In this document: positions 16,994 through 64,000 of the stretch, piece after piece | Position numbering within the stretch: the first letter of the stretch is position 1 | Layout of the letters: every line of letters begins with the position of its first letter | NCBI GenBank assembly: GCA_018881555.1 | Contig: JACAXG010000021.1 | Span: forward strand, 9,127,909 to 9,191,908 | Reading direction: 5' to 3' | Source: Amblyornis subalaris | Taxonomy: Eukaryota; Chordata; Aves; Passeriformes; Ptilonorhynchidae | DNA: 64,000 nt | Notes under the pieces: generated by a model | What the model saw: the letters and a program-made list of their open reading frames with translations, nothing else | The model's database searches: none | What the model was told of the DNA's origin: nothing | Position numbers and translations under genes: made by a program

Positions 16994-17199
16994 GTGCTAC
17001 TTTCAGACTTCTTCTGTTGACTTGTGAAGACTTTCATACCAACACCCCACCCAAGAGCTTGACCACTGAAGGACAGCCTGCAATGGCCTTTCAGAATGTT
17101 CTCCAAGCAGCTCGTGAAAGAGCATGGTGACTCTAGAGACCTGATGAAGCCCCAGCTCCTGCCAAGCGTGTGGTCAAATGATCTGGGCAATGCATATCA

Positions 17200-17286
17200 G
17201 GAGAGGACAGGAGAGGAGAGGAGAGGACAGGAGAGGAGAGGAGAGGAGAGGAGAGGAGAGGAGAGGAGAGGAGAGGAGAGGAGAAA
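17200..17286. repeat. (GGAGA)n pentamer array
   Basis: About 17 copies of a 5-bp purine unit with two GGACA variants near the left end. All purine on the plus strand, so it is a mirror-like purine tract. Confidence 0.97.
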
Positions 17287-25100: not shown

Positions 25101-27659
25101 ATTACACATGCCAGCTCTTAAAATCTTCCGTATGTATGAAGATTTTTGCAGTTCACATGAACATGAATTTTTGTCAGAGTCATAGATTGCACTTAAACCA
25201 AAGTACTGCACACACTGCTCGTTGACCATACAGTCAGGGCTTCAGCTTTGGCTATCTTACAAGCCTTATATCTTTGTATACAGGGGTGTAAACANGGTCC
25301 ATACAAAAAGAGAAGTTCTTTGCCTTGAATCCGAGGGAGTTGGTGAGCCTTCTAATGTGCATCCAAGCACCCTCATCGCTTGGGCCAGCACAGATGAGTT
25401 TTGATCTGCTGTTCTTGTACATAATCTCCATTAGACTTCCCTTGAGCAATCACCTGCAGGTGGATTCATATCACACGCTATTCTTAGCCTACATGTCTCA
25501 TTTCTGGGTGTTACAAGAAACTGGATTAGAAACAGGTACTCAGCATAAACAGGCGAGCCGCTNGAAATGCCCTAAAACTGCAGTTTCAGCAGACTGCATC
25601 CAGCAAAAGAACAAACTTGAGTTTCAAGTGGTTTAACAGGTCAAAGCAGAGGAACAAAGTAATACATTCATGGTTGAAAGTGTGCATACACCTGCATATA
25701 CATCCACACAGCTGCACAATCAACAAAACACTTCCACAATTTAAAAGCCTAATTAAGCAAATCAGGCTGATATGTAGATCTTTTCTTTAACTTAAAGAAC
25801 ATTTTTAACATCTTACCTCACATTCGCTCCACTGAAAATGAAATTAAGAGCTCTTAAGACAGTATTTCATTTTCAGAATATAAACCTAGATAAATTCAGA
25901 AAATAAACCTAGAGATGTCCAGCCTCATCATGTCTACAGCTATTCTGAGTGTGTATTCTGTGCCTCAGAACAGCAGAATGTGATGCTATACAGGTATCAA
26001 AATATAAATTCTTCATGCATAGAAGTGCAGCCAGCTGCCCAAATATTAGGTGCTCAAGGGCCTTAGGGCATTGATGCCTCATAAATTTAGGAGTATTTAT
26101 TAGGTGAATACAGAACTGGAAGTTTTGTAGCAGTGGAAAGTAAGTATGATAATGAGGTAAACACATGTTCCAAAGAAAATACGAGCTAATGGTGCACTTT
26201 GTGGAGGAGACAGCAGCTTTAAACAATCACTTCGTGAATGCTGGAGCAAGGCCTGTGAGCTGCTACAGGATGGGCTGCTTGTTAATGACATCTCTCTGCA
26301 TCCTGTAGCTTTTTTAGCTCTGTAAGCCCAGTCTGACAAGTAGGTAACCAATGGGTGTTCTGCTCCTTATGAATGCTCCTTTCTGTTCCAAAAAGTGGAG
26401 TGTTACATGTAGCTTCAGTTTTCCTTCAATAAGTAAGAGGAAGCATCCTTCAGGGGACCATAACCACAGGTACAGTCAGGATTCCCTCGTTGCGTCGGAG
26501 ACCTCAGGTGTGGTGAAGACTGTGCATCGTGAGCTCCATCTGGAGGTTGTTTGCTCTATTCTGTGGTTTTGGAAGAAATGGAGAGAAAATGCAGCAGTGC
26601 TGGGTCAAGGTCACCGAGACCCAGGGTCATCTGGAAAAAAATGATCTTGCAAACCAGCAGAGCTGGCTAATGTGGGGGTGTCACGAAGAGAATGGTGGGT
26701 GGTGGGATGAGCTCTATTTGCCTATGGTAAGGGGGACTTTACAGCCTTTACACCTGAGATGAAGCCTTTGCTGTCAATTTCCTTATCCATTGGTCATCGC
26801 AGCACACATGAGACAGAAAACACAGCACACAGTCAAGATTGTCCTGTGAGACTGCCTATGGTGGAAGCAGCTGCCCTCCCAAGTCCCAAGGGTGCATATT
26901 TGAAAGTTTGTCTTTACCTCCACCCTCAAAAGTAAAGGGCATGGTGGAGGAGACATCAACTCAGTCTGTGCCTTCCACAGAGCATACACAGCAGTGGGAA
27001 AGGTCATTGTAGAGGTCCAGGGCTAGATAGCATGTGGAAAAGTAGAGGTTTGGTAATTTGAATGAGGTATTGATGCATGAGGCTTACAAAGCAGTTGTCT
27101 GAGATGTAGAGCAAGTTTCTGATGACTTATGCCAAATGTCCATCCTGGTGGTTTTGCTCAGCTCTTTCCCACAGCTGTCTGCATGCACAGCTTCAACTGC
27201 AGTCTTCCACTGTTATCTTAAGGACTACGAATTCTGAAAAAAGTTTCAGACTGAGTCATTTTGGTTGTACAAAGTCAGAGAGAGCTGAGGTGTGATCAGG
27301 CTTTCCGCCCACTACTCTGACAGTAAAAGCTGTTGGGAGTGGGGTACACAGGACCCCGCAGCCTCTCTCCATNCTAATGTTAGACACAAATTAGTGCTGC
27401 ATGGTTGAGCTAAAACCCACCAGTGACGGTTCTTTCTGTTTTGCCAGAGGTCTCTACAGTGCTTGTAGCAGTGAGGGGTCAGACTAGCGCAGAACTGTTG
27501 AGCAGAGCAAGAGAGCTCCATGAAAAACCAGAGTGTTCTGTGCANAGGAAGGTCATGCTGAGTGGGATCTCTTTGTTCGAGGACCTGCTGTGTGTTAATG
27601 TGCTCATCATCCTCCTATCCGAATGGAAAAAAATGCTGGGGGATTCTTAAGCCAAGAAC
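22147..27659. other. Intergenic, nothing recognised
   Basis: Searched by eye for remains of Maverick capsid, protease, integrase or ATPase genes next to the polymerase fossil and for MRPL33; neither was seen. Confidence 0.55.
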
Positions 27660-27753
27660 AGTCCTAGATATCCCAAGAGCCCTTTCCTCTTCCAATGCAG
27701 CGAACATCATTGTGGGGTTAGAGAGGGCGGGAAAAGTATTTGGGGTGAGAAAT

Positions 27754-27960
27754 GTCTGTGAGATTTGCCATACACCCTATAATCACACCCATAGCTGTAA
27801 ATATTATTGCCAGCTCTGCTTGCTGCATGACCATGCACTTAACACTGCCACGAGAAGCAGATGTCCCAGCCGCAGACTCCTGCACTGGCCTGGGGAACCC
27901 AGATTGTTTGGCTGTGATTTTATGTGGAAAAGCATCTCAAAGGTAGCGGCTGGAAGCATG
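27754..27960 (+). pseudogene. Cys/His-rich N-terminal block of the polymerase fossil
   Basis: A stretch with closely spaced Cys and His (CEICH, SCKYYCQLC, LHDH) in an open frame beginning upstream at 27562. Polymerases of this group carry a zinc-ligand-rich region before the exonuclease domain. Alone it would be weak evidence, but its spacing to the exonuclease motifs fits. Confidence 0.6.
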
Positions 27961-28089
27961 TCCTGTGCCATGAACAGGCCTGTAACGCAAGCCAGCAGCA
28001 GCGCTCCATGCCTGGGATCAAAACCCCACGAGCAGAGCAGGGCTCTCTTCTCGAGATGGGACACGCGCAGGAAACCGTGCACAGCCCAA

Positions 28090-28640
28090 ATTACATTTTT
28101 GCCACGGATTTAGTGCCGGATGCCCCACGGGATGAAGGAGTGGAAAGGAAAACTGAAGGAGAATGGGAGCTTAAGGGGACATGTGGACTTCAGTCAGCGG
28201 CTTAACGACACACAGTTTCAGGGCTACGCTTCTCTAACGCTGGAGGCTACGACGGCTGCTCAGTTGCCAGCCAGCTTCTGAAAGAAAAAACCTGTCTGCA
28301 ATTAATTACCCAGGGTGTTAAACTGATGTGCAAGCAGTTTTCATTTTCATAGACTCTTTACATTTTTTACTCATGAAACTAAGCAGTCTTGCCTAAGTCA
28401 TGGGTATCAAGGGCTGCAAAATTTATTTCCTCCATGTTTTCAACACTGCTTAAAATCAGACTTACATAGGGCCTCTTCCACAAGAGGATTATGACAGAGT
28501 GCACAGCATGGTGCTTAAGGAAAAAAAAGCAATTCTTGACATGTACACAGACCATCAGGAGATCTTTGACATGCAGTAAGAGCTGAGTTACTACTGCCAG
28601 CAAGATGTAAAAATTTGGAGGGAGGCCTGCAGATCATAGA
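28090..28640 (+). pseudogene. Exonuclease-domain remnant of the polymerase fossil
   Basis: Three motif-like patches in the right order: a YIF..D patch at 28092, YDG at 28248 and YCQQD at 28592, the last matching the Tyr-x-x-x-Asp exonuclease III pattern. The first two share a frame and the third is shifted. The second acidic residue of motif I appears lost. Confidence 0.7.
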
Positions 28641-29099
28641 TAAGATCGTGGTGATGGCCTGTCACACAGTGGATGAGAAAGAAAGTGATGAAAAAGTGAA
28701 GGTTTATTGCTGTGTAGATCCCTTTCTGTGTAATATGGTGACCTCTACTCCAATGTCCACATACTGGTTTATAGTTTTATTGGAAGAAAAAGAGATATTT
28801 GATGAATGACACATATACCTGGCCAAAAAGGAGAATATTCAAACCTGTCATGCTTTACACAGCTGTTGAGTATCAAGTGAGAAACTGCTCCGGGATGGCA
28901 AAGTGATCATCAATGGGAGGACAACTACTTTCAAATATAATGGGTGATTTTTCCGTGGTTTTATTGAATGCCACCATGAAAATGACTGGAACCATGCAGT
29001 GGGGATCACCTTTGGGTGCTCGTTTTACACAATGAAACAAAAGACGGGTGGCCTAACGAGAGCAGGTTTTACCATCAGGCCCGTATGGGAGCACAAGTG

Positions 29100-30110
29100 A
29101 GCTGCTATGAAAAGAAACAGATGGGGAGCTCACGGTCTTAGCCAGGACCAAACTGTCCAGGCCCTTATCCCCAAAGATGTGTTTTCTGGCAGCAGGTCAA
29201 TACCATTTGTCTGTACTACAAAGCAGCCCCCAATGAAAAGATACACTGACCACCTACTTTAGGACAGTAAAAATAAAGGTGTACTTACATGGGCTCTTTT
29301 CCCCACTGCTTCTCACAAGCATAAATGGCAAATTATTTTCTTCCCTGTCTGAAACCTGCCAGGCCTGCTGCTGAGGAATAGAAGTCCCTTGCAGTTGCCT
29401 GGTACACCCTGGAGCTGAACAAGGCTCTGGGGAAGGCCTACATCTGTGAATCCTATGAGATCTGGCATTTTGAAGAGAGGCAATAGCCTTTCCTTGGATT
29501 ACATAAAGATATGCCTCTGCCAGAAGCAGGAAGCTTTAGGCTGCCCAGCCTGGCGTGCAGATGCAGACAAAACCCCTGCTACATATACTGAAGATTACAG
29601 GCACAAAGATGATGCTATTTTGTAGCTTGAGCATGTCAAGTAAACCCCTACGAAATGCCAAACTGCCACTGTTGAGCAGGCTGTGGGGTAGAAGTGGAGT
29701 GAGCTCCATTGCTCCAACACTACCATTGCGACATCCAAGGTGTTGTGTGGTTATCCCTTCACCCCAGCTCCTGACATGCCCTCCTGTGACTTGTCCATGA
29801 GGATGCAGCCACCGGCCCGTGGAAGCACCAAAGGATGCCTGTCCCTGATGTGCAAGACTGCCATTTCTACAGTTCCCTTCGCCCCTGCATGGTTGTGCCT
29901 GGAGCTGTACAAACCCTCAGCCATCCTCTGTGACCTTGCCTTTACCACAGCAGAGGCTCTGGGACAACTGTGAGTCATCCAGGGCATTGCCCCAGGCAGG
30001 GACAATTTAAGTGAGCTGATGAGTGATGACCACGTTACTGAGTCGGAGGCTTCAGGTCCCAAGGGGTGCTTAAAAGTTGAAGGCTGGACTCCAAGTGCAA
30101 CAAACAGAAA
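29100..30110 (+). pseudogene. Polymerase (palm/thumb) remnant of the polymerase fossil
   Basis: Family-typical blocks survive in order (LYYKAAPNEKIH, then INGKLF near 29322, then YEIWHFEERQ, then a Lys-rich YIK...KQEA segment near 29500). A TGA follows the first and a TAG the third. The catalytic YxDTDS-type motif is not recognisable; its expected position near 29900 is badly eroded. Confidence 0.75.
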
Positions 30111-30120
30111 AGATTCATTT

Positions 30121-30989
30121 TTCTGTGAAACCCCAGAGGGGCTGGGCAGGGACAGGCAAGCCTGGCAGTGCCCCCAGGGTCTCGGCAGCCCCTTGGGGGA
30201 CTCCATAGCCCTGGGGCATACTCCAGCTTGCTCACACCTTCCCTCCTCTCTTCAACTCTCTCCCCACCCCAAAGAGGTCTTGATGTGCAGGCCCAGAAGG
30301 TTGGGGGACATGTACTTGCCCTTTGCTTTTATTTAATTACTTCCATTCACCTTGACTGAGGAGGTTGCCCTTTCTGAAATGGAGGCGACTGCCTGCACTG
30401 ATGGACTCTGGGGTACAGGGAAAACATTAGGTCCTTCCAATAAACACTTGCAGCACTGTCACCTCTACATAATGATGCCTATTTGTAGCACTAACAACTC
30501 TTGCTGGCAAAGAATTTCATAGCCTAATCCCACAGACATTCAAAACTATATTAGTGATAAATTAAGAGCAGGCATACCTTAAACAGCATTAAGATGGCAC
30601 TTTGCTCATGTTGTGACACAAGAATAACAGAGTTCATTATAAGGTTTTCCACAATATCCTTCCATTGTTTCTTCTGTTACCCCCAACTTAAGCAGTGCCA
30701 GCCTCTTCAGTTCTTTGGCATTTCTGCACCTTTATAACATTGTATGCTCAATATTTCCTCTCCTCTCCATACCAGGTATCCCAATAACTGAGNAAGGGAG
30801 AAATGAAAACAATTTTCTTTTCAAAACATAAGTTCTTCTTTTTTCCATAGGAAGGGGAAAAAAAAAAGGACCTTCAAGTTTTAGGTTGTGTTTACCACGA
30901 CAGTATTTTCCAACAGCAGCCACAGAAACAAACCAGTAGTGTTTCTTATTTTAATTGCATAAACCCAACCTCAATAAATTTTATCAAGC
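30121..30989. other. Gap between polymerase fossil and SLC4A1AP 3' end
   Basis: Unique sequence with no recognised gene. The left part may be the eroded C-terminal end of the polymerase fossil. Confidence 0.5.
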
Positions 30990-31326
30990 CTGTAAGTATA
31001 CAGAGGTGTATTCTTTTAATATTTTTTGCATACTGTTATTTACAAAAGGAAAAATGAGCCTACAGTTTCAAGCCAAATAAAAAAAACTCCAAGACTAAAA
31101 GTGAAAGAGGCTGAAGAATGTGTGGGCTTTTACTTTAAAAAAAAGTATCTGGAAGACAAACAGAGGACACACAGGAAGAGCTAAGAGCCAGAGCAGCTGC
31201 TGATGCCCTTGAATTTGAAACAGCATCTGAAAAATCAAGTCTCTTATCCCTCACTTAGTGTGTGGTGAAAGAGTCCAAAATAGAGCACTCCTTCAAGCCT
31301 CAGATGTCCTCTGGGTCACTTGAAGC
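30990..31326 (-). other. SLC4A1AP: Probable SLC4A1AP 3' untranslated region
   Basis: Follows the stop codon on the minus strand. I see no AATAAA in the first 300 nt, but an ATTAAA variant (plus-strand TTTAAT near 31014, a second near 30949) could serve as the polyadenylation signal. Extent is inferred only. Confidence 0.4.
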
Positions 31327-46300: not shown

Positions 46301-47472
46301 ATAAACACAGCATTACCCTGCTCTTCAAAAACTAGAATCATGAGACCATTAGTTATGGTGTGCATTCCAAAATATATTAGCTTTAATGGCATTTTAAAAA
46401 GCAGGGCAGGAAGAAATAAGCATTATTATGTACTGGTAGTCAGATCTATCTCAAATATAACTGTAATTTAAAGGCTGAAGGCAAAAATTCCCGTCGGAGT
46501 TACATGGGTGAATTTGAGGAATGAGCAGCTTCTGAAGTGCTTGTACAGCACACCATGTGCTGTCAAAGCTCCTACTAATACACGCTCCCCTTGTTCACAA
46601 AGAAATATCAGTTCTTTACTTTACCGGGGCATCATACTGTTGGAAAGGCATCCCTAATACACCACGCTGTTGGAGAGAAATGCCTTTTTCACTCACTGCA
46701 CATCAGCAGAAGCCCGCAGCCCCACTCCATCCTTCAGCCCCACACCTCACCGCAGAGCCGGCAGCAGATACCCACAGCTTTTCTCCCAGTAAAACAACCA
46801 CGGCAGCGCTGGGCTGCTTCCGAACCGCCTCACACCTCGGGCAGTCACCCGATGGAGCCGGGTAAATTCCTGAGCCCGATCCGGGCGAGCCTTTGCCACT
46901 CCCGCACACGCTCCGGAGCCGCCCGCGCCCGAGCCCTGACCCACCTGCAGGAGGAAGAGGCGGGAGCTGCCGCCGAAGCGCAGCCCGTGGCCCACCCGCA
47001 CCCGGCAGTAGGTGCGGGGCGGCACCCGCGCCTTGTTGAGGAAGGTGCCGTGGGTGCTGCCCAGGTCGTACACGTAGAACCCGGCGGCATCGGCGCCGCT
47101 GGGGTCGTCGGGGTCGCCGCCGGCGCCGCGGTACTGCAGCACGGCGTGGTGCCGCGACACCGAGGGGTGCTCCAAGGACAGGGCGCAGCCGGGCAGCCGC
47201 CCCACCAGGAACCAGCTGCCGTCCTCCAGCCGCACCGAGCCCAGCAGCACGCCGCCCTTCAGCACCTCCAGCCCGTATCCGGAGCCGGCGGGCGGGCGGC
47301 TGCCCCACGGCGGCTCCTCGTAGCGCGGCGCGGGCGGCGCGGCGGCGGCGGCGCGGGGGGGTCCCGGCGGGCCGGACCCCGGGTCGCCGGGCCCGGGGGC
47401 GGCGGGCAGCGGGCGGCTCGGGCGCTTGAAGGCGGCGGGCTCGGCGGGCTCGGCCTCCGCGGCGTCCGCCAT
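31327..47472 (-). CDS. SLC4A1AP: SLC4A1AP (kanadaptin), complete 14-exon coding region
   Basis: Coding exons (high to low): 47472-46945, 46213-46030, 45349-45227, 44414-44354, 43476-43337, 43211-43051, 42506-42437, 38741-38552, 37722-37611, 37025-36785, 36008-35934, 34890-34820, 32645-32600, 31376-31327. They sum to 2,052 nt, 683 residues plus stop, and every junction is GT-AG with matching phase. Domains: low-complexity Ala/Pro N-terminus (1-62), FHA phosphothreonine-binding domain (about 66-176), charged linker, dsRBD-like domain (about 268-345), basic and acidic coiled regions, a run of ten Glu in exon 10, and a conserved C-terminus ending in KYGY. Human kanadaptin is about 796 residues; the difference is mostly in the low-complexity N-terminus and the acidic tail. 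Family knowledge: a nuclear protein first described as an adaptor for the anion exchanger SLC4A1, a role since disputed; links to splicing have been reported. It is divergent with SUPT7L. One ambiguous base lies in exon 10 (36830). Confidence 0.97.
32600..32645 (-). CDS. SLC4A1AP: SLC4A1AP exon 13 (46-nt microexon)
   Basis: Encodes [15 protein letters not shown] and one base of the next Gly, a near-perfect match to the end of human kanadaptin. Acceptor CACAG|TACCCA after an eight-T tract, donor GCAG|GTATCA. Confidence 0.93.
32863..32945 (-). mobile_element. CR1 LINE fragment (antisense)
   Basis: AATAGAAATGCTGGTTAGAG then GGGACCTCTGGAGGTCATCC and CAACCTGTCCA: a short reverse-complement CR1 3' piece inside SLC4A1AP intron 12. 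Confidence 0.7.
34820..34890 (-). CDS. SLC4A1AP: SLC4A1AP exon 12 (71 nt)
   Basis: Predicted exon for residues 629-652, Lys/Glu/Ser-rich and ending KKINSSSK just before the conserved YPDDDPDY of exon 13. Acceptor CCCAG|CATCC, donor CAAG|GTCAGT. Phase fits both sides. Human has extra Pro/Gly residues here that this exon lacks. Confidence 0.8.
35521..35556. repeat. Perfect 2 x 18-bp tandem repeat
   Basis: GATTATTACCTAATGTTA occurs twice without change, in an SLC4A1AP intron. Confidence 0.95.
35934..36008 (-). CDS. SLC4A1AP: SLC4A1AP exon 11 (75 nt)
   Basis: Predicted exon for residues 604-628 and one base of 629 ([20 protein letters not shown] and following). Similarity to human is weak here, but acceptor TACAG|AGGTTG, donor CAAG|GTGAAC and exact phase agreement with exons 10 and 12 support it. 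It could be alternatively used, since it is 75 nt and frame-neutral. Confidence 0.75.
36785..37025 (-). CDS. SLC4A1AP: SLC4A1AP exon 10 (acidic run)
   Basis: Encodes residues 524-603 and one base of 604. It opens with [19 protein letters not shown], matching human, then has ten consecutive Glu codons (GAG/GAA mixed) and a poorly conserved acidic or polar tail. An ambiguous base at 36830 leaves one residue undefined. Acceptor TGCAG|AAGTTG, donor GATG|GTAAAC. The GAR-repeat DNA is a likely length-variable site. Confidence 0.92.
36937..36962. repeat. SLC4A1AP: Coding GAR trinucleotide run (polyglutamate)
   Basis: TCCTCTTCCTCC-type DNA on the plus strand encodes ten Glu on the minus strand within SLC4A1AP exon 10. 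Confidence 0.8.
37611..37722 (-). CDS. SLC4A1AP: SLC4A1AP exon 9
   Basis: Encodes residues 486-523, including the signature [18 protein letters not shown], which is almost identical to human. Acceptor GTTAG|GAGTGG, donor AGGG|GTAAGT; ends in phase 0. Confidence 0.95.
38552..38741 (-). CDS. SLC4A1AP: SLC4A1AP exon 8
   Basis: Encodes residues 423-485 and two bases of 486. Contains [20 protein letters not shown] and the basic helix [20 protein letters not shown], both conserved with human. Acceptor CCTAG|TCCAGT, donor CCCA|GTAAGT. Confidence 0.95.
38742..42436 (-). other. SLC4A1AP: SLC4A1AP intron 7 (3.7 kb)
   Basis: Longest intron of the gene. It carries an LTR fragment at about 41157-41215 and a plus-strand open stretch at 40445-40732 that I cannot identify. 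The rest is AT-rich unique sequence. Confidence 0.6.
41157..41215 (+). mobile_element. Avian ERVL-like LTR fragment
   Basis: GTGTATTGGGTTTGCATGGC then CAGGTTTTGGCAGG and a G-run with CCTACAG closely resembles the 5' end of an LTR common in bird genomes. Only the first 60 bp or so are recognisable. No partner LTR or internal region seen. Confidence 0.6.
42437..42506 (-). CDS. SLC4A1AP: SLC4A1AP exon 7 (70 nt)
   Basis: Encodes residues 400-422 and one base of 423: [20 protein letters not shown], a predicted coiled-coil segment. Acceptor GATAG|GTCACA, donor AAAG|GTAAGG. It is followed by the gene's longest intron (3.7 kb). Confidence 0.92.
43051..43211 (-). CDS. SLC4A1AP: SLC4A1AP exon 6
   Basis: Encodes residues 346-399: a basic RKRKSKNW patch (possible nuclear localisation signal), the highly conserved [17 protein letters not shown] segment, and a [12 protein letters not shown] basic helix. 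Acceptor CTCAG|TATCCC, donor CCTG|GTAGGA. Nearly every residue matches the mammalian protein. Confidence 0.96.
43337..43476 (-). CDS. SLC4A1AP: SLC4A1AP exon 5
   Basis: Encodes residues 299-345 and one base of 346, completing the dsRBD-like domain: [20 protein letters not shown], then [20 protein letters not shown], the final helix. Acceptor AACAG|GTTGCC, donor GCAG|GTGAAT. Confidence 0.95.
44354..44414 (-). CDS. SLC4A1AP: SLC4A1AP exon 4 (61 nt)
   Basis: Short exon for residues 279-298 and two bases of 299: [19 protein letters not shown], the first beta strands of the dsRBD-like domain. Acceptor TCTAG|GAGAAG, donor TCAA|GTATGT. Found by homology and phase; too short to stand out as an open frame. 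Confidence 0.93.
45227..45349 (-). CDS. SLC4A1AP: SLC4A1AP exon 3
   Basis: Encodes residues 238-278 and one base of 279. After an acidic lead it carries [15 protein letters not shown], the strongly conserved entry to the dsRBD-like domain. Acceptor TCTAG|GTGAGG, donor GAAG|GTAATT. Confidence 0.95.
46030..46213 (-). CDS. SLC4A1AP: SLC4A1AP exon 2
   Basis: Encodes residues 177-237 and one base of 238: the [17 protein letters not shown] helical segment, an acidic [13 protein letters not shown] stretch and a CSWGMG end that matches the human protein. Acceptor CTTAG|GGACCC, donor ATGG|GTAAGT. Confidence 0.94.
46945..47472 (-). CDS. SLC4A1AP: SLC4A1AP exon 1 (start codon, FHA domain)
   Basis: Encodes residues 1-176 and ends in phase 0 at a CAG|GTGGGT donor. 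The start codon at 47472-47470 sits in a good context (GGGAAG before ATGG). Residues 1-62 are Ala/Pro/Gly-rich. The FHA fold follows: the GR pair at 91-92, the SVSRHHA phosphopeptide-binding segment near 104-110, and [11 protein letters not shown] at 136-146, all hallmark FHA loops. The exon lies wholly inside the CpG island, which explains its extreme GC content and long shadow frames. Confidence 0.96.
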
Positions 47473-47476
47473 CTTC
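47461..47476 (-). promoter_or_regulatory. SLC4A1AP: YY1-like site overlapping the SLC4A1AP start codon
   Basis: The minus strand reads GGGAAGATGGCGGACG. AAGATGGCGG matches the core of the YY1 motif, which typically lies just downstream of transcription starts and often includes the initiator ATG. Function is inferred from the match and position. Confidence 0.5.
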
Positions 47477-47981
47477 CCGGGTCCGCTCCCAAACGGAGTC
47501 CTCCGGGGACGCGCGCCGCGGCGCTGCAGTGCCGGGGGTAGGGCGCAGCTCCGGGGGTCGCGCCGCCGCCGCCCAGCGCGGCCCGGGGCAGCGTGAGGGG
47601 CGAGTCAGGGAGGGCGGTGGCGACGGGCGAGGCTGCACCGGCGGCGGCGGGCGCTTCCCTCCTCCCGGCGCCAAGGAGTGCGGGTGCCCGGGGAGCCGCT
47701 CCCGGTGGCGGACCGGCACGCAGTTCCGGCTGGGTGGCTGGAGCGGAGCGGAGCCGGGGGGTACCCGGGGGGTACGCGGGGGGCGGGCAGGCTGGGGGTG
47801 CGGGGGCAACCGCGGGCCTGGGGAGGGAGAGAAGGCGGGCNAGCCAAGTGCGGCCCCCCGAATTTCTCTACGCCGTGGGTCACGCTCAGCGAGGCCCAGG
47901 TGGGCCCACACCAGCCTTTGGTACACACAGAAACAATTTCCGTCTCACGAGTGCGTTTGTTTCTGCTCCCTCTCCCCTCAG

Positions 47982-48230
47982 GAAAAGCCTCGTTGCGACC
48001 TGTTAAATGCCGCAGTGGCGACTTGATGCCGTCGAGGACACCGCACTGGTCAGCGAGGCGCTGAGCGACAGCCTGCTTGGCAGCCGTAATTGGCTTTACT
48101 TGGAGCATCATCCCAGCCCCGGTGTCTGTTGCTTTCCAAAGTGCTTTTCCTTGCAACAAGGGCCCTTCGTACCCACAGTATTTGGTAGCCTTCTTCTGGG
48201 CTCTGAGCACAACGGGTGATCTATGTAAAA
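47982..48230 (+). other. SUPT7L: Probable SUPT7L 5' leader in the first coding exon
   Basis: A good 3' splice site (CTCCCTCTCCCCTCAG ending at 47981) lies 250 nt before the start codon, suggesting that an upstream non-coding exon in the CpG island joins here; GCCCAG|GTGGGC near 47899 is one candidate donor. The leader contains a 70-codon upstream ORF. Confidence 0.55.
48007..48219 (+). other. Upstream ORF in the SUPT7L leader (70 codons)
   Basis: Opens at ATG 48007 (MPQWRLDAVEDTALVSEA...) and ends at TGA 48217-48219, only 11 nt before the SUPT7L ATG. Its frame differs from the main ORF. If the leader is transcribed as predicted, ribosomes would have to reinitiate or leaky-scan. It resembles no protein I know, and its high GC content could leave it open by chance. 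Confidence 0.45.
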
Positions 48231-48643
48231 ATGCTGCGATACTGGGGCGAGATCCCGGTGTCCTCTAACCAGGCCAACCGCAGCTCCTTTGACTTGCTGC
48301 AGCGTGAGTTCCGTACTGTAGAAGTCCAGGATCCTCCACTGCACCAACCATCTGCGAACAAACCGCGTCCGACCACCATGCTGGACATCCCATCCGAGCC
48401 CTGCAGCCTCACCATTCACACCATCCAGCTCATCCAGCACAACCGGCGGCTGCGCAGCCTCATCGCCACGGCTCAGGCTCAAAACCAGCAGCAAGCAGAG
48501 GGCATAAAAACTGAAGAGAATGAACCTCTGCCGTCTTGTCCGGCCTCTCCGCCTCTCCCTGATGACCTGCTTCCTCTGGATAGCAAAACCCCCAAAATGC
48601 CATTTCAGCTGAGGCACAGTGACCCAGAGAGTGATTTCTACAG
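48231..48643 (+). CDS. SUPT7L: SUPT7L coding exon 1
   Basis: Residues 1-137 and two bases of Arg138. Contains the N-terminal RYWGEIP block, the HPTIQ-like helix TIHTIQLIQHNRRLR, a Gln-rich AQAQNQQQ stretch and an IKTE sumoylation-consensus tetrapeptide. Donor CTACAG|GTGTGT. Confidence 0.96.
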
Positions 48644-51600
48644 GTGTGTTGGTATTTCTTTAGGTTAGTTCCTGGCTGAAGGAAAGCAGAGTGTTTTAAA
48701 ATATATATGTAGTTATGTTGATTCTCTTAGGCTGAAGGGTCAGACAGTTGTATGTAAAGTATAAAACAGGCTTTGGAAAGGAAATACGTAGATTTTTCTT
48801 GTATGAATAACATGCACATCGTTTAAAGTAAACGTGCCTTTGTTTCTTGTCCATAAAGTGTGGATGTGTAGTGCTGATTTCTATCTTGTTAGTGCTATGC
48901 TAAATGCTTGTGAATAGTTTTGCTATCTGCAGTGGTATTTTGACAGCTTTAGTTACAGGATGTGAAATCTCTTCTATTTAGGTCACTTACAACTAAAGTT
49001 GTGTTATTGTAATTGAAAACCCAGAAGACACATGACTAGGTTTTAGCTGTTTAGCTGTAGGTTCTGAAAAGATAATTTGAAACATATTTGTAAGATTTCA
49101 GTGGCCAAGTGATGCCAGGGGATTTTTTCAACCAAGTAAGGCATCACAAGGACCTGTGACATAGTAACTATCCCATTCCACCCAGTTTGTTGGTGGTTTT
49201 CCAGTCAGTGGTGAAAATGAGTGCAGGCGAAGGGAATTCTTGACTCTGGTACTGGCTCCACCAGCCAAGGGCTGGAGAAAATGTAAAGAAAAGTTGTGTT
49301 GCTTCTACCTCTGCTGCCAGCCTTCGATTAANTAGTATTGCCACCACCTCCCTTTCTACTCTTCTGACAGGCACTGAATTCACAAGGAGGTGTTGCATTT
49401 CTTGCAGGATCTCGCAATACATTGTAGGTTATGTGCGTTTAAATTAAGGGAATAATCCTTGCCACGATGTGCACTAATGAACATTTTGTAGGAGAGGAGA
49501 ACACATTTTCCTTTTCAAAATGGGTAAATGTGCATCAATGAAATACAATTTATCAGTTAAATGCCACTGAGATCTTTAATGGCCTGAGGTTATATAAAAT
49601 GCATTTTACTGAAAGATGTTGCATTTTGTAAGAGTCTCTCTGAACAGTAGAGTGATCCTTTAGTGCTGTCTCTGGAGGAACCATCATCCTTCTCCGAAGA
49701 TACAAAGTAATTAGCAGAGAGGGGTGAAGGGAAATACAAGTGTGAGAGTCAAGTCAGGCTCTGTGACTCCTGCGCTGTGGTTTATAGAACTGAGAAGTGT
49801 TCTGCTCTGTCCTCCTCGGTGGCTTTAGCTTGAAGTTCAGTTTTCTATGGCTTTGGCCATGTTTTGAGGGCTACTTTGTCTTTTTGTTGTTCCTTCCGAG
49901 TTTCTGGGGTCCGGGCGAAGAAATGTTATTTAGTGGTCAGCCACGTGGGGGAGTTTAAGGACTACNCTGTGAAAACTGGAGAGAGTTTCAAAATGAAATG
50001 TTTTGTGGCTGACAGAGAGTGGATTTATAATGAACTGCAGTGTATTCTAGAATTTAATTGTGTGCTTGCTAACCCAAACACATTTATGCTTTTCCAGGAG
50101 GGNGGCTTTGAGTTTGTTGTTGCATGCTTGTCCTTAACTGTTTTAAGACACATGAATTAAGAATAGCAGCTGTTCAATCGGTGCTGTTCTAGTAGCAAAA
50201 ATTAAGTTCTGTGATTTGCCAATGCTACTTAGTGTATAAAATCAAATTAAAGGAAGAACATTCTTCCCCCCATAAAACATGGTGCTGCCTTCTGAAGTAC
50301 AGTTGTCAGAATTACAGTATTCAACTAAATCCATATTTTAATTCCATATTTTTTGTCAGTAACCTGGGTCTGAGAAGCAGTGTGTAGGTACCTTTACGCA
50401 CAGGGAGAAAGGAAGGTAAGAGTAGCCAGCCTGAATCAGATCACAGGTTTATTTAATATAGGCATGTTCTCCTTTATTTCCTTGTTATTAATTTTCATCT
50501 TTTGATACATGGCCCCTTTGTCTTTTATTTTGTTATCCCCTGCACTAATTTTGGTTTTCCTCTGCCCTGTCCTATACCTGTAACCGGTACGTCCTCATAT
50601 GATGAGGAAGAGGCAGAACCTAATTTATGACTATTTTTGAGTTGATTTGGTCTTTTCAATCCCTGTACAAAGTCTGTACTACCAATGGTTTTATAATCAC
50701 TACACTATTCCTCTCCTACACTTTTCNGGACTGTTTATAAATATGTTGAAGCAAACATGTTAAAAAATACGTTGATTTTAGCACAGATTCCTGAGGGAAG
50801 ATGTGGACTCCACAGTGGAGATCTCTGACATACTTGCTTGTTGATAGATTCGGAGGACTTTAGTAGATTTGTGAAGCAGGTTTTACACTTAAAAAAAACC
50901 TCTCTAGATTCTTTCTGAGCATAACATATTTACTTGTGCATCCTCTAGTTCTTCAAATTTCCCTGATGCACCTAAATATATCAGGCTTCCCAGCCTGCAG
51001 TTTTTCACATCTCTTCTGAAGCTATTAAAAGAAAATGTTTTCCCATATTCTGTCTTCTGGTCCTCATGGGCCAAGGTAGTTTGAAGCAAGAGGTGATTCA
51101 CCACAGCTATTCAGCTNTTTCATCCTTGAATTCCTTTAGTATTCTTGGATNAATTACCATCTGGTCCTGGTGATTTCCAGTTCTTGATGTTACAGTTCTT
51201 GGAATGCACANTAAGGGATTAACATTTGGTTTTGGTTGATGTAGAAATAGAAAATAAGCTTAAAGCATAATTGATGAAGAACAAATAAGGAACTGTAGAC
51301 TTAAAACTACCATTTCAACAGGATACTCTTACCATAATACAGATGCTAGCTTTTCCATCTTCTCTGCTCGGCTTCCTCAGATTAGCCTGGAGCCATCTTC
51401 AAAAGAAGCCTAACCTACTCATGTGCCTCTTTAGGTGCTTTTTGCTGTGTGTGCATGGTTGGTTTCTGAACAGATTTCTCAGTCATTCTGTCATTTGCAT
51501 TCCTGACCACGCTGGATTGCATTGAAAGGTAATCTGTAAACAAAATTGGGAGCTTGCAATGGGGAGACAGTTGATGGCAGAAGGACTTGTAGNTAAGAAA

Positions 51601-54600: not shown

Positions 54601-57600
54601 ATAGAGTACATGCACTTAATTGTGAGCTGAGGAATCTGGCAGATATGTTTCCCTATCAGAGGCCTTTGCCTTAACTCCTCTTTTTTCTCTGTGGAATTTC
54701 TATTTGTTAATTTGTGTTGACGAAAAATTTGGTTGGCTGACTATAAATGAATGATGTTTGAAGTGCTCATGTCAGTTGTTCTTCATCTCCTCCATCCTGT
54801 GTGGTCACTCCTTCCTGCTTAGCAACAGAAAAGAGAGGTCTCAAACCCAAGGCTAGGGAATGCTGCTTTATGGCAGAAAACCCAAGACCAGGGAATGTTG
54901 CTTTGTGGCAGAACCTCTTCAGGCCTCCTCCCAGGGCGTGGTGTTTGCATCTTAGGTTGGGGATACTTCTTTCAGTGTCATGCCTAGTGACTATTGGAAA
55001 TGAGGGCAGGGAGAGAGCCTTTTTGCCTACACTATACCTGTATGAAATATATGTTATCCCATTTCTTGCTTTTTTATGTGTGTCTTTTACATTAGAAATT
55101 CCAATCTTGTCTATCCCAGAAGCCTTTGTATCTGACTATTAGGCCTGTGACATCAGAGATAATAAGAAAGAGAAATGTAATTAACTGAGAGGGGAAATTA
55201 TTTACATTCATGTTATTTAAAATGCCTTTTTTTGTTTGTGTCAAGGACCCATTTAATTCACATCTCCAGGAGAAAAGCTCTTGGGTGGGCAGAGAGATGC
55301 TTAAGGGTTCAGAAGATTTGCATCCCGCATTCATGAATCACCCAAAGAATCTTGTGGCATTAGAAGGGAAAATGAAAACTGGAAGTGATAATTTGGAGGG
55401 AGGAGGAGAAAGAAAAGCAGACAAACCCTTATTAGGTGGTGTTTAGATGTAACAGAGAAGCTGTGGAGAACCCCAAACCCTCTGCTTTACCTTTGTACAT
55501 CACCTTATTATTGACAGTACCTCTTCAACTGATAGACTCCTTCAAAGTTTTAAAAGTTTTTTTTTTTGGGCTTTCTGTTTTTTAGAGGAAAAGGNGAGCC
55601 AGTGACGGAGCTGAGTTGGTCCTCCTGCCGGCAGCTCCTGTACCAGTCAATGGCCACCATCCTGGCTCACACAGGCTTTGAGTGCGCCAACGAGAGTGTC
55701 CTGGAGACACTGACAGACATCGCCCACGAGTACTGCCTCAAGTTCACCAANCTGCTGCGCTTCGCTGTGGACCGGGAAGCTCGACTCGGGCACACCCCTT
55801 TCCCTGATGTCATGGAGCAGGTCTTCCATGAGGTGGGCATTGGCAGCGTGCTCTCACTGCAGAAGTTCTGGCAGCACCGCATTAAGGATTATCACAGCTA
55901 CATGCTTCAGGTGAGAAGAGCATTAGGGACCTGACAGCACCAAGAAATGTACCCCCGGTGCAATTGCTTATTCCTGTGGCAAGTCCTGAGACTTACTGAG
56001 GGGAAATCTGACTGGAAAACCTCCTGGGTGTGGAGAGGAGTCATCAAAGGAAAGAGAACAGGAATTTTTTGACAGAGCCCCTTATTTGTGTCCTTACTGA
56101 GACTAAGGATGCTCTGCTGATGGCTTGCTTGAGTTTAAGAAGAGTTGCCCAGCTCTTGAATTACCCAGACAAAATTATCAAGTAGAGGTAAAATCAGACC
56201 TGGCTGGTGAACTGAATTTTCTGCTTTAGTGGAATATTTGGCTGGTTAACATTTTGAAAAACAAGAAACCAGACATAAATTTCTGGGCTGTAGAATGGTT
56301 TGTGTTCACTTAAGCAATAAGTGAAGGAGTGCCTTCCTTAAGCTTTAGGTGTATAGCGCAATATTTTGCTGATCTGAGTTGTCACACAGGTGCTACCTTC
56401 TTCTTATATAAATATAACATCATAAAGGTCTGTCTTTGTTAGAAACATTCCTGTTCAAAATACCGGTTCTGTTCATTTTTGTTTGAATGTTTTTGTTCAG
56501 ATGTTGTGTCCTTTTGGAATTTGCATTTTTTGCATCATTCTGCTGATGCAGTTCACTCTCGTCCTGCAGCTGATCATTGTCTTAACTGGTTTTGTTCTTT
56601 ATGCAGGACTGAGGTCCACAGTAGCCTCTGTATTTGGAAGTATGTCTAGAAGGGGGAAATAGGCTTTGCTATTCTTTTTCCTCCTTGTTTCTGCTGTTAA
56701 AAAGTTTTGAGATTTTCCTGAGCACAGTTCACTGACTGTTGGGATTTAGTTGTATAAACAGGCATGTGTTAGAAGCAGTTGAAACATGAAATTTTTAAAT
56801 TTAATTGTTTACTGTTGTTAAGTTTCTGGAAATACAGGGTAGTTCTAAATACCATTCCTGTATTTGTTTCACTTCTCTGACTGGAGAAAACTTCTCTGTT
56901 TTTTGCTGTGAATCTGACAGAAGGCCCAGTGGTGCCTAAGAGCTGTTGAAGATCTGAGGTGCTTGGTTGTTAATGGTGGGGTGAATTTCTTACTGGAGGA
57001 TGGGGACGGTCTTGAAAGCCAAAGAGTAAGACTGAGACACTCTGCTTTTGTTTCGTGCTCTGTTTAAATTTCTGGTCCTCATCATCTCTGTTTGTAAAAT
57101 AAAGGTGCTCATATTTATCGGTCAGATATTAGTGGATTAAACCTCTTATTAAAGTCCCTTGTTACAGCACAGAAGGTGCACTTAAAGGGGAAAAAAATAA
57201 ATCTCTCCTGTGTAGCTGCTAAGTTGTTTACTTGTTCATTCAGGTCAGATGTTAATAATGTTCAGGGAACAGAGTGCACTGCAATGTAATTGCCATCAGA
57301 GCCTCTGAAGTCACTCTCACCTTTCTGGCCTCTTTTTCACCCACTGATCTTTGACAGGTTAGCAAGCAGCTCTCTGAAGAATACGAGAAAATTGTCAACC
57401 CTGAAAAGGCAGCAGAAGACACAAAACCTGTGAAGATAAAGGAGGAACCTGTTAGTGATATTACTTTCCCCATAAGTGAGGAGCTGGAAGGAGATCTGGC
57501 TTCTGGTGACCAATCTTTGCCTGTTGGAGTTCTTGGAGCTCAAAGTGAACGCTTCTCTGCCAACTTGGAAGTAGAAGCTTCCCCGCAGACTTCAGGTAGG

Positions 57601-63904: not shown

Positions 63905-64000
63905 CTTTCCTTTTCCTTTTCCTTTTCCTTTTCCTTTTCCTTTTCCTTTTCCTTTTCCTTTTCCTTTTCCTTTTCCTTTTCCTTTTCCTTTTCCTTTTCC
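63905..64000. repeat. (TTTTCC)n hexamer array, open at the window end
   Basis: About 16 near-perfect copies of a 6-bp pyrimidine unit running into the window boundary; true length unknown. Confidence 0.97.

What the first reader, a model, noticed from the sequence alone, without database searches (positions are those of the whole stretch)
27660..30120. Colinear fossil of a Maverick/Polinton-adintovirus type DNA polymerase in a bird intergenic region
Cys/His-rich block, three exonuclease-like motifs and several polymerase blocks occur in the right order and roughly the right spacing on one strand over 2.4 kb, with at least five frame changes and many stops. Chance could give one such motif, not a colinear set. 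Large self-synthesising DNA transposons and related viruses are scarce in bird genomes, so a readable copy next to a conserved gene could date an invasion of the lineage. The order is seen in the sequence; the family assignment rests on recalled motifs.
Basis: partly seen in the sequence, partly recalled or inferred. Interest (0 to 1): 0.85.

Follow-up and report, generated by a model that had tools for sequence, protein, structure and literature searches.

The report
Dead viral DNA polymerase gene
A stretch near two ordinary genes looks like the broken remains of the DNA-copying gene of an ancient virus-like element; similar remains are already known from birds, so this is one more example rather than a new kind of thing.

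Summary
Window 27.66-30.12 kb (+) most likely holds a badly decayed protein-primed DNA polymerase B (pPolB) gene, probably of Maverick/Polinton (adintovirus) type.

Support: its Cys/His piece matches four protein clusters from unnamed contigs (E 1e-45 to 2e-66); these run into other window frames or across a window stop. Profiles from 13 phage pPolBs place the window's best same-frame ExoII-ExoIII pair at 28337/28583; 1 of 3000 region and 2 of 150 window resamples do as well. A block pair at 29394/29488 ranks 5 of 128000; 8 of 1000 region resamples reach it.

Against: no polymerase hit in Pfam, PHROGs or NCBIfam; motifs A, B, C and block V do not show, and a ten-block chain peaks elsewhere. 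No Maverick PolB could be fetched, so the family name rests on recall and published bird Mavericks. No Maverick integrase, capsid gene or TIR was found; a target-site duplication was not searched for.

Degraded Mavericks in birds are in print, so 'scarce' is too strong. New member of a known kind; I did not see this locus in print.

The parts
27562..28110 (+). stop-free 183-aa piece, frame 1, with the Cys/His block (about 27751-27870)
   Evidence: four proteins match at E 1.4e-45 to 1.6e-66; aligned
27918..28202 (+). stop-free piece, frame 0, overlapping the former; two of the four relatives run into this frame
   Evidence: P0001 at 27990-28202; P0004 at 27978-28028
28322..28393 (+). frame 2 piece carrying the exonuclease-II-like block (28337-28384)
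   Evidence: phage pPolB profile: 2nd best position of the six-frame window; 3 of 3000 region resamples reach it
28397..28576 (+). two further stop-free pieces in frame 2 between the two exonuclease blocks; polymerase-like by recall only
   Evidence: read; no Pfam or PHROGs hit for 28454-28576
28580..28636 (+). frame 2 piece with the exonuclease-III-like block (28583-28627)
   Evidence: partner of 28337 in the best same-frame pair of the window; weak alone (score 1.0, 52nd in the truncated list)
28870..29246 (+). pieces in frames 1 and 0 read as the middle part of the polymerase; recall only
   Evidence: no polymerase hit for the pieces scanned here
29237..29371 (+). frame 2 piece read as a block of the polymerase domain; recall only
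   Evidence: block V of the phage profiles does not find it; no database match
29382..29483 (+). frame 0 piece with polymerase-domain block T (29394-29471)
   Evidence: best place for block T in the region, rank 51 alone; with block F rank 5 of 128000, 8 of 1000 region resamples
29419..29622 (+). frame 1 piece with polymerase-domain block F (29488-29538)
   Evidence: best place for block F in the region, rank 16 alone; paired with T
29692..30120 (+). frame 1 pieces (29692-29970 and the start of 29974-30333) read as the polymerase C-terminal part; recall only
   Evidence: motifs B and C do not stand out here with the phage profiles

Best explanation
27.66-30.12 kb is the relic of one protein-primed DNA polymerase B gene that came in with a Maverick/Polinton (adintovirus-type) element, which copies its linear DNA with a protein primer and inserts through its own integrase (established knowledge of the family, not shown here). 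After insertion near SLC4A1AP and SUPT7L the copy died and has drifted without evident selection on the protein: stops and indels broke it into pieces in three frames, and the rest of the element is no longer recognisable. It makes no full polymerase now. Shown: Cys/His piece shared with four other sequences, broken frames, two block pairs in the right order. Inferred: Maverick origin, orthology, neutral drift.
For: Four proteins match 27562-28110 at E 1.4e-45 to 1.6e-66 among 14 candidates; they run into another window frame (P0001, P0004) or across a window stop (P0002, P0003), as dead lineages do. ExoII-ExoIII pair: best of the window, 1 of 3000 region and 2 of 150 window resamples, 1st in 22 of 30 settings. 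T-F pair: rank 5 of 128000, 8 of 1000. The two pairs stand in the order of the gene. Degraded Mavericks are published from many birds. By recall, pieces in 28.2-30.06 kb read as consecutive blocks of vertebrate Maverick PolB.
Against: No piece hits a polymerase model in Pfam, PHROGs or NCBIfam. Motifs A, B, C and block V do not show; the ten-block chain is higher at 57 kb and on the minus strand near 33 kb. The ExoII-ExoIII spacing (82 aa) exceeds that of the 15 references (30-67 aa), and a higher ExoIII score lies at 28787, beyond the spacing allowed. With three Varidnaviria references alone the pair ranks 16th-96th. The T-F score is negative. Blocks were chosen after I had read the sequence. 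No Maverick integrase, ATPase, protease or capsid gene and no TIR was found.
Confidence: 0.87

Rival explanations
1. Chance: only the Cys/His piece is a real old sequence shared by several genomes; the polymerase blocks are chance likenesses in decayed intergenic DNA.
For: Ten-block chain not the window's best; A, B, C, V not found; no polymerase hit in any library; blocks picked after reading.
Against: Two block pairs at resample rates of 1 of 3000 and 8 of 1000 in the same 2.4 kb, same strand, right order; the first stable in 22 of 30 settings.
Confidence: 0.07
2. Relic of another virus with a protein-primed PolB (adenovirus-like or an unknown relative), integrated by accident rather than by a Maverick integrase.
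For: The tests used phage pPolBs only and cannot tell branches apart; no integrase, capsid gene or TIR was found.
Against: Mavericks are the pPolB elements reported as fossils in bird genomes in the passages read; the recalled family-specific blocks fit Mavericks.
Confidence: 0.04
3. Pseudogene or lost exons of a host zinc-finger gene.
For: Cys/His-rich piece open in several contigs; weak zinc-ribbon and RING matches for two relatives (E 0.32-3.8).
Against: None of the zinc matches is significant; relatives break frame differently; it does not explain the downstream block pairs.
Confidence: 0.02

Closest known systems
Degraded Maverick/Polinton copies in birds (PMC8097293, passages; PMC4992247, passages)
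   Same: Broken protein-primed PolB relics in bird chromosomes, shared between species
   Different: Those of chicken and turkey lie on chromosomes 2 and Z, with integrase and capsid remains on 2; this one is a polymerase relic near SLC4A1AP/SUPT7L. Whether this locus is in those papers' tables could not be read (no supplement look-ups).
Placental Maverick fossils on human chromosomes 7 and 8 (PMC9683012, parts 1-2 of 6 read, and passages)
   Same: PolB relic with stops and frameshifts, no TIR, neutral drift
   Different: There 8 and 4 of 9 core proteins were traced and orthology shown by synteny; here only PolB and no synteny test
Very old Polinton protein fossils of tetrapods (PMC9004415, passages)
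   Same: Polinton protein fragments kept as fossils in vertebrate genomes
   Different: Other genes and loci in the rows seen (near ZBTB20, ZFP64, CBLN4); aged by cross-species alignment
Phage protein-primed PolBs, e.g. PRD1 and phi29 (loci L033, L032)
   Same: ExoII and ExoIII block order; spacing of blocks T and F
   Different: Intact genes; 470-763 aa in the 15 aligned; too distant to name the branch

Membership tests
Protein-primed DNA polymerase B (pPolB) | exonuclease blocks ExoII and ExoIII in order | tested here: met
   (1 of 3000 region resamples; rank 1 in 22 of 30 settings); spacing longer than in the references
Protein-primed DNA polymerase B (pPolB) | exonuclease motif ExoI | tested here: inconclusive
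   only as part of the ten-block chain; absent from the two chains traced at the relic
Protein-primed DNA polymerase B (pPolB) | polymerase motifs A, B, C | tested here: not met
   no site in the region stands out; erosion or deletion would explain it but that is inference
Protein-primed DNA polymerase B (pPolB) | other polymerase-domain blocks at reference spacing | tested here: inconclusive
   T-F pair 8 of 1000; block V absent and ten-block chain not best
Protein-primed DNA polymerase B (pPolB) | hit to PF03175 or another curated polymerase model | tested here: not met
   single stop-free pieces only; short pieces can fail HMMER's filters
Maverick/Polinton (adintovirus) | PolB closest to Maverick PolBs | not testable with these tools
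   no reference PolB of the family obtained
Maverick/Polinton (adintovirus) | retroviral-like integrase, packaging ATPase, adenoviral-like protease, capsid genes nearby | tested here: not met
   Pfam scan of 137 pieces (48 aa or more) and 119 pieces (50 aa or more), 18.1-46.7 kb, both strands, E up to 1: no such model; two peptidase models of other families at E 0.1 and 0.17; decayed pieces could be missed
Maverick/Polinton (adintovirus) | long terminal inverted repeats | tested here: not met
   Searches (20-40 kb; 8-46.5 kb): only arm pairs of 23-34 nt, 71-79% complementary
Maverick/Polinton (adintovirus) | 6-bp target-site duplication | not tested
   no element ends were found to test

The most novel reading that the evidence does not exclude
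One insertion older than the crown birds, whose Cys/His block has been kept by selection (as DNA or as a short reading frame) while the rest decayed: over the 10 pairs of five sequences the block keeps 414 of 523 compared residues (79%) against 108 of 164 (66%) upstream and 306 of 472 (65%) downstream. The pairs are not independent, open frames were selected by the search, and the flanks hold frame changes, so drift explains it as well.
Probability: 0.06. Interest if true: 0.6.

Novelty: new member of a known kind. Interest (0 to 1): 0.33.

Why it matters
Why Mavericks died out in birds and mammals is called a mystery in PMC9683012 (passages). A relic that can be followed beside two conserved genes could give a minimum date for one insertion and a neutral marker. 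The lesson of method is that family searches with single pieces missed this fossil, while block pairs and matches from other contigs showed it.

Tried and rejected
Tried without result: Pfam on 20 chosen pieces (two non-polymerase matches at E 0.12 and 0.15) and on 256 listed pieces (137 + 119; 254 different), PHROGs on 10 (two families of unknown function, E 0.076 and 0.18), NCBIfam on the 137, Rfam and tRNA on the window (none), solved structures with two pieces (one chance match at E 0.34), phage records with two pieces (2 records at E 1, hypothetical protein; none). Collection patterns: viral contigs (0; 28: 1; 33: 1; 45: 0) and genome contigs (29); judged by eye, L001, L002 and L003-L031 show no polymerase context. 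The search for related loci with a 68-aa piece: 10 stretches, none confirmed. Protein search with a 45-aa piece: 1 candidate, none scored; a second round from P0002 gave the same four.

Rejected: naming the branch by the phage profiles (too distant); dating by protein identity (species unknown); host MRPL33 next to the relic (one chance match).

Choices and rows dropped: one search listed 40 of 263 records; I fetched 14 of the 40, chosen by eye for variety, plus phi29 and PRD1 by accession. 15 of these 16 were aligned (L042 left out, its gene being annotated in two parts). BadAargau2 and Goe6 were left out of the profiles except in the 'all 15' set. L034 and L035 were not used. One search kept the top 12 positions per frame, so its lower ranks are lower bounds. 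One search used only ExoII sites scoring above 4, another the top 60 per frame.

Full report
What is there. The + strand of 27.66-30.12 kb has no intact reading frame: the 27400-30450 stretch splits into 56 stop-free pieces of 18 aa or more, the longest 183 aa. That longest piece (27562-28110, frame 1) carries a Cys/His block. Reading the pieces by eye, I recognise in frames 1, 0 and 2, in order, what look to me like blocks of a vertebrate Maverick DNA polymerase up to about 30.06 kb. That recognition is recall, so I looked for tests that do not rest on it.

Test 1, relatives. A search of about 5.8 billion proteins with the 183-aa piece gave 4 hits among 14 candidates, E 1.6e-66 to 1.4e-45, 68-77% identity over 62-79% of the query; in the multiple alignment identity to the window is 65-77%. 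A second round from one relative returned the same four. Their sources are unnamed contigs. Placed back on the window, P0001 and P0004 run into another frame, and P0002 and P0003 read through a place where the window has a stop. The sequence is therefore shared by several contigs and broken differently, as expected of a dead gene. That they are the same insertion in other species is inference; their surroundings could not be fetched.

Test 2, phage polymerases. Since no Maverick PolB could be had, I fetched protein-primed PolBs of phages, aligned 15 and made profiles from 13. The ExoII profile puts 28337-28384 second of the six-frame window. With a spacing of 30-120 aa, the best same-frame ExoII-ExoIII pair of the whole window, both strands, is 28337 with 28583; its score is reached in 2 of 150 resampled windows and 1 of 3000 resampled regions, and ExoII alone in 3 of 3000 regions. 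Over 30 settings of references, block limits and spacing the place ranks 1st in 22, 3rd in 2, and 16th to 96th in the 6 settings with only PRD1, Vibrio phage 1.249 and RickRoss. Further down, block T is best in the region at 29394 and block F at 29488 (ranks 51 and 16 alone); as a pair at reference spacing they rank 5 of 128000, with 8 of 1000 region resamples.

Results against. The exonuclease spacing of 82 aa is longer than the 30-67 aa of the references; ExoIII scores only 1.0 at 28583 and 3.5 at 28787 in the same frame, which lies beyond the spacing allowed. The T-F pair scores -4.8. Motifs A, B and C show no standing site in the region, block V none, ExoI has no place in the two chains traced there, and a chain of ten blocks is best at 57 kb (28.0), then on the minus strand near 33 kb (24.2), then at the relic (24.0), of 818 windows. 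Pfam, PHROGs and NCBIfam gave no polymerase. The blocks were chosen after I had seen the sequence, so the resample counts are not clean probabilities.

Surroundings. At 46.7-47.6 kb (-) lies the FHA-domain exon of SLC4A1AP (kanadaptin), and at 48.2-48.7 kb (+) SUPT7L (STAGA 65 gamma), with a Bromo_TP exon at 55.6 kb that I take for the same gene. An exon at 36.7 kb (-) looks like the SLC4A1AP C-terminal part (recall; one search gave only matches at E 0.16 and 0.19). The relic lies about 6.6 kb beyond it, on the opposite strand. Of 256 listed pieces (254 different) from 18.1 to 46.7 kb none hits an integrase, packaging ATPase, adenoviral-like protease or capsid model at E up to 1; two other peptidase models appear at E 0.1 and 0.17. 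Inverted repeats are limited to 23-34 nt arms.

What is known. Defective Mavericks are reported in palaeognaths, penguins, swifts, hummingbirds, owls, cormorants, ibises and the hoatzin, with orthologous loci in palaeognaths and penguins (PMC8097293, passages); chicken and turkey have Polinton remnants on chromosomes 2 and Z, including PolB (PMC4992247, passages); placental mammals have two such loci (PMC9683012); older fragments predate the split of amphibians and amniotes (PMC9004415, passages). A search for papers with at least two of Polinton, Maverick, SLC4A1AP and SUPT7L found 141 and listed 8, none of the 8 with either gene name. Supplementary tables could not be read, so the locus may be listed there.

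Verdict. A decayed protein-primed PolB gene is well supported; its Maverick origin is likely but untested. It is one more case of a known kind. Interest is modest and would rise with an orthology date or with proof that the Cys/His block is under selection.

Noticed in passing
46747-48665: SLC4A1AP (minus) and SUPT7L (plus) stand head to head, supported by solved-structure matches.
   Followed up: yes
63906-64000: Perfect TTTCCT hexamer array of 15.8 copies running to the window end.
   Followed up: no
17199-17284: AGGAG pentamer array, 17.2 copies, 95% match.
   Followed up: no
54843-54913: Two copies of a 35-bp unit, 88% match, between the SUPT7L exon at 48 kb and the Bromo_TP exon at 55.6 kb.
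   Followed up: no
1-64000: 66 ambiguous bases (N) in the window; those seen in 27000-31000 stand singly.
   Followed up: no
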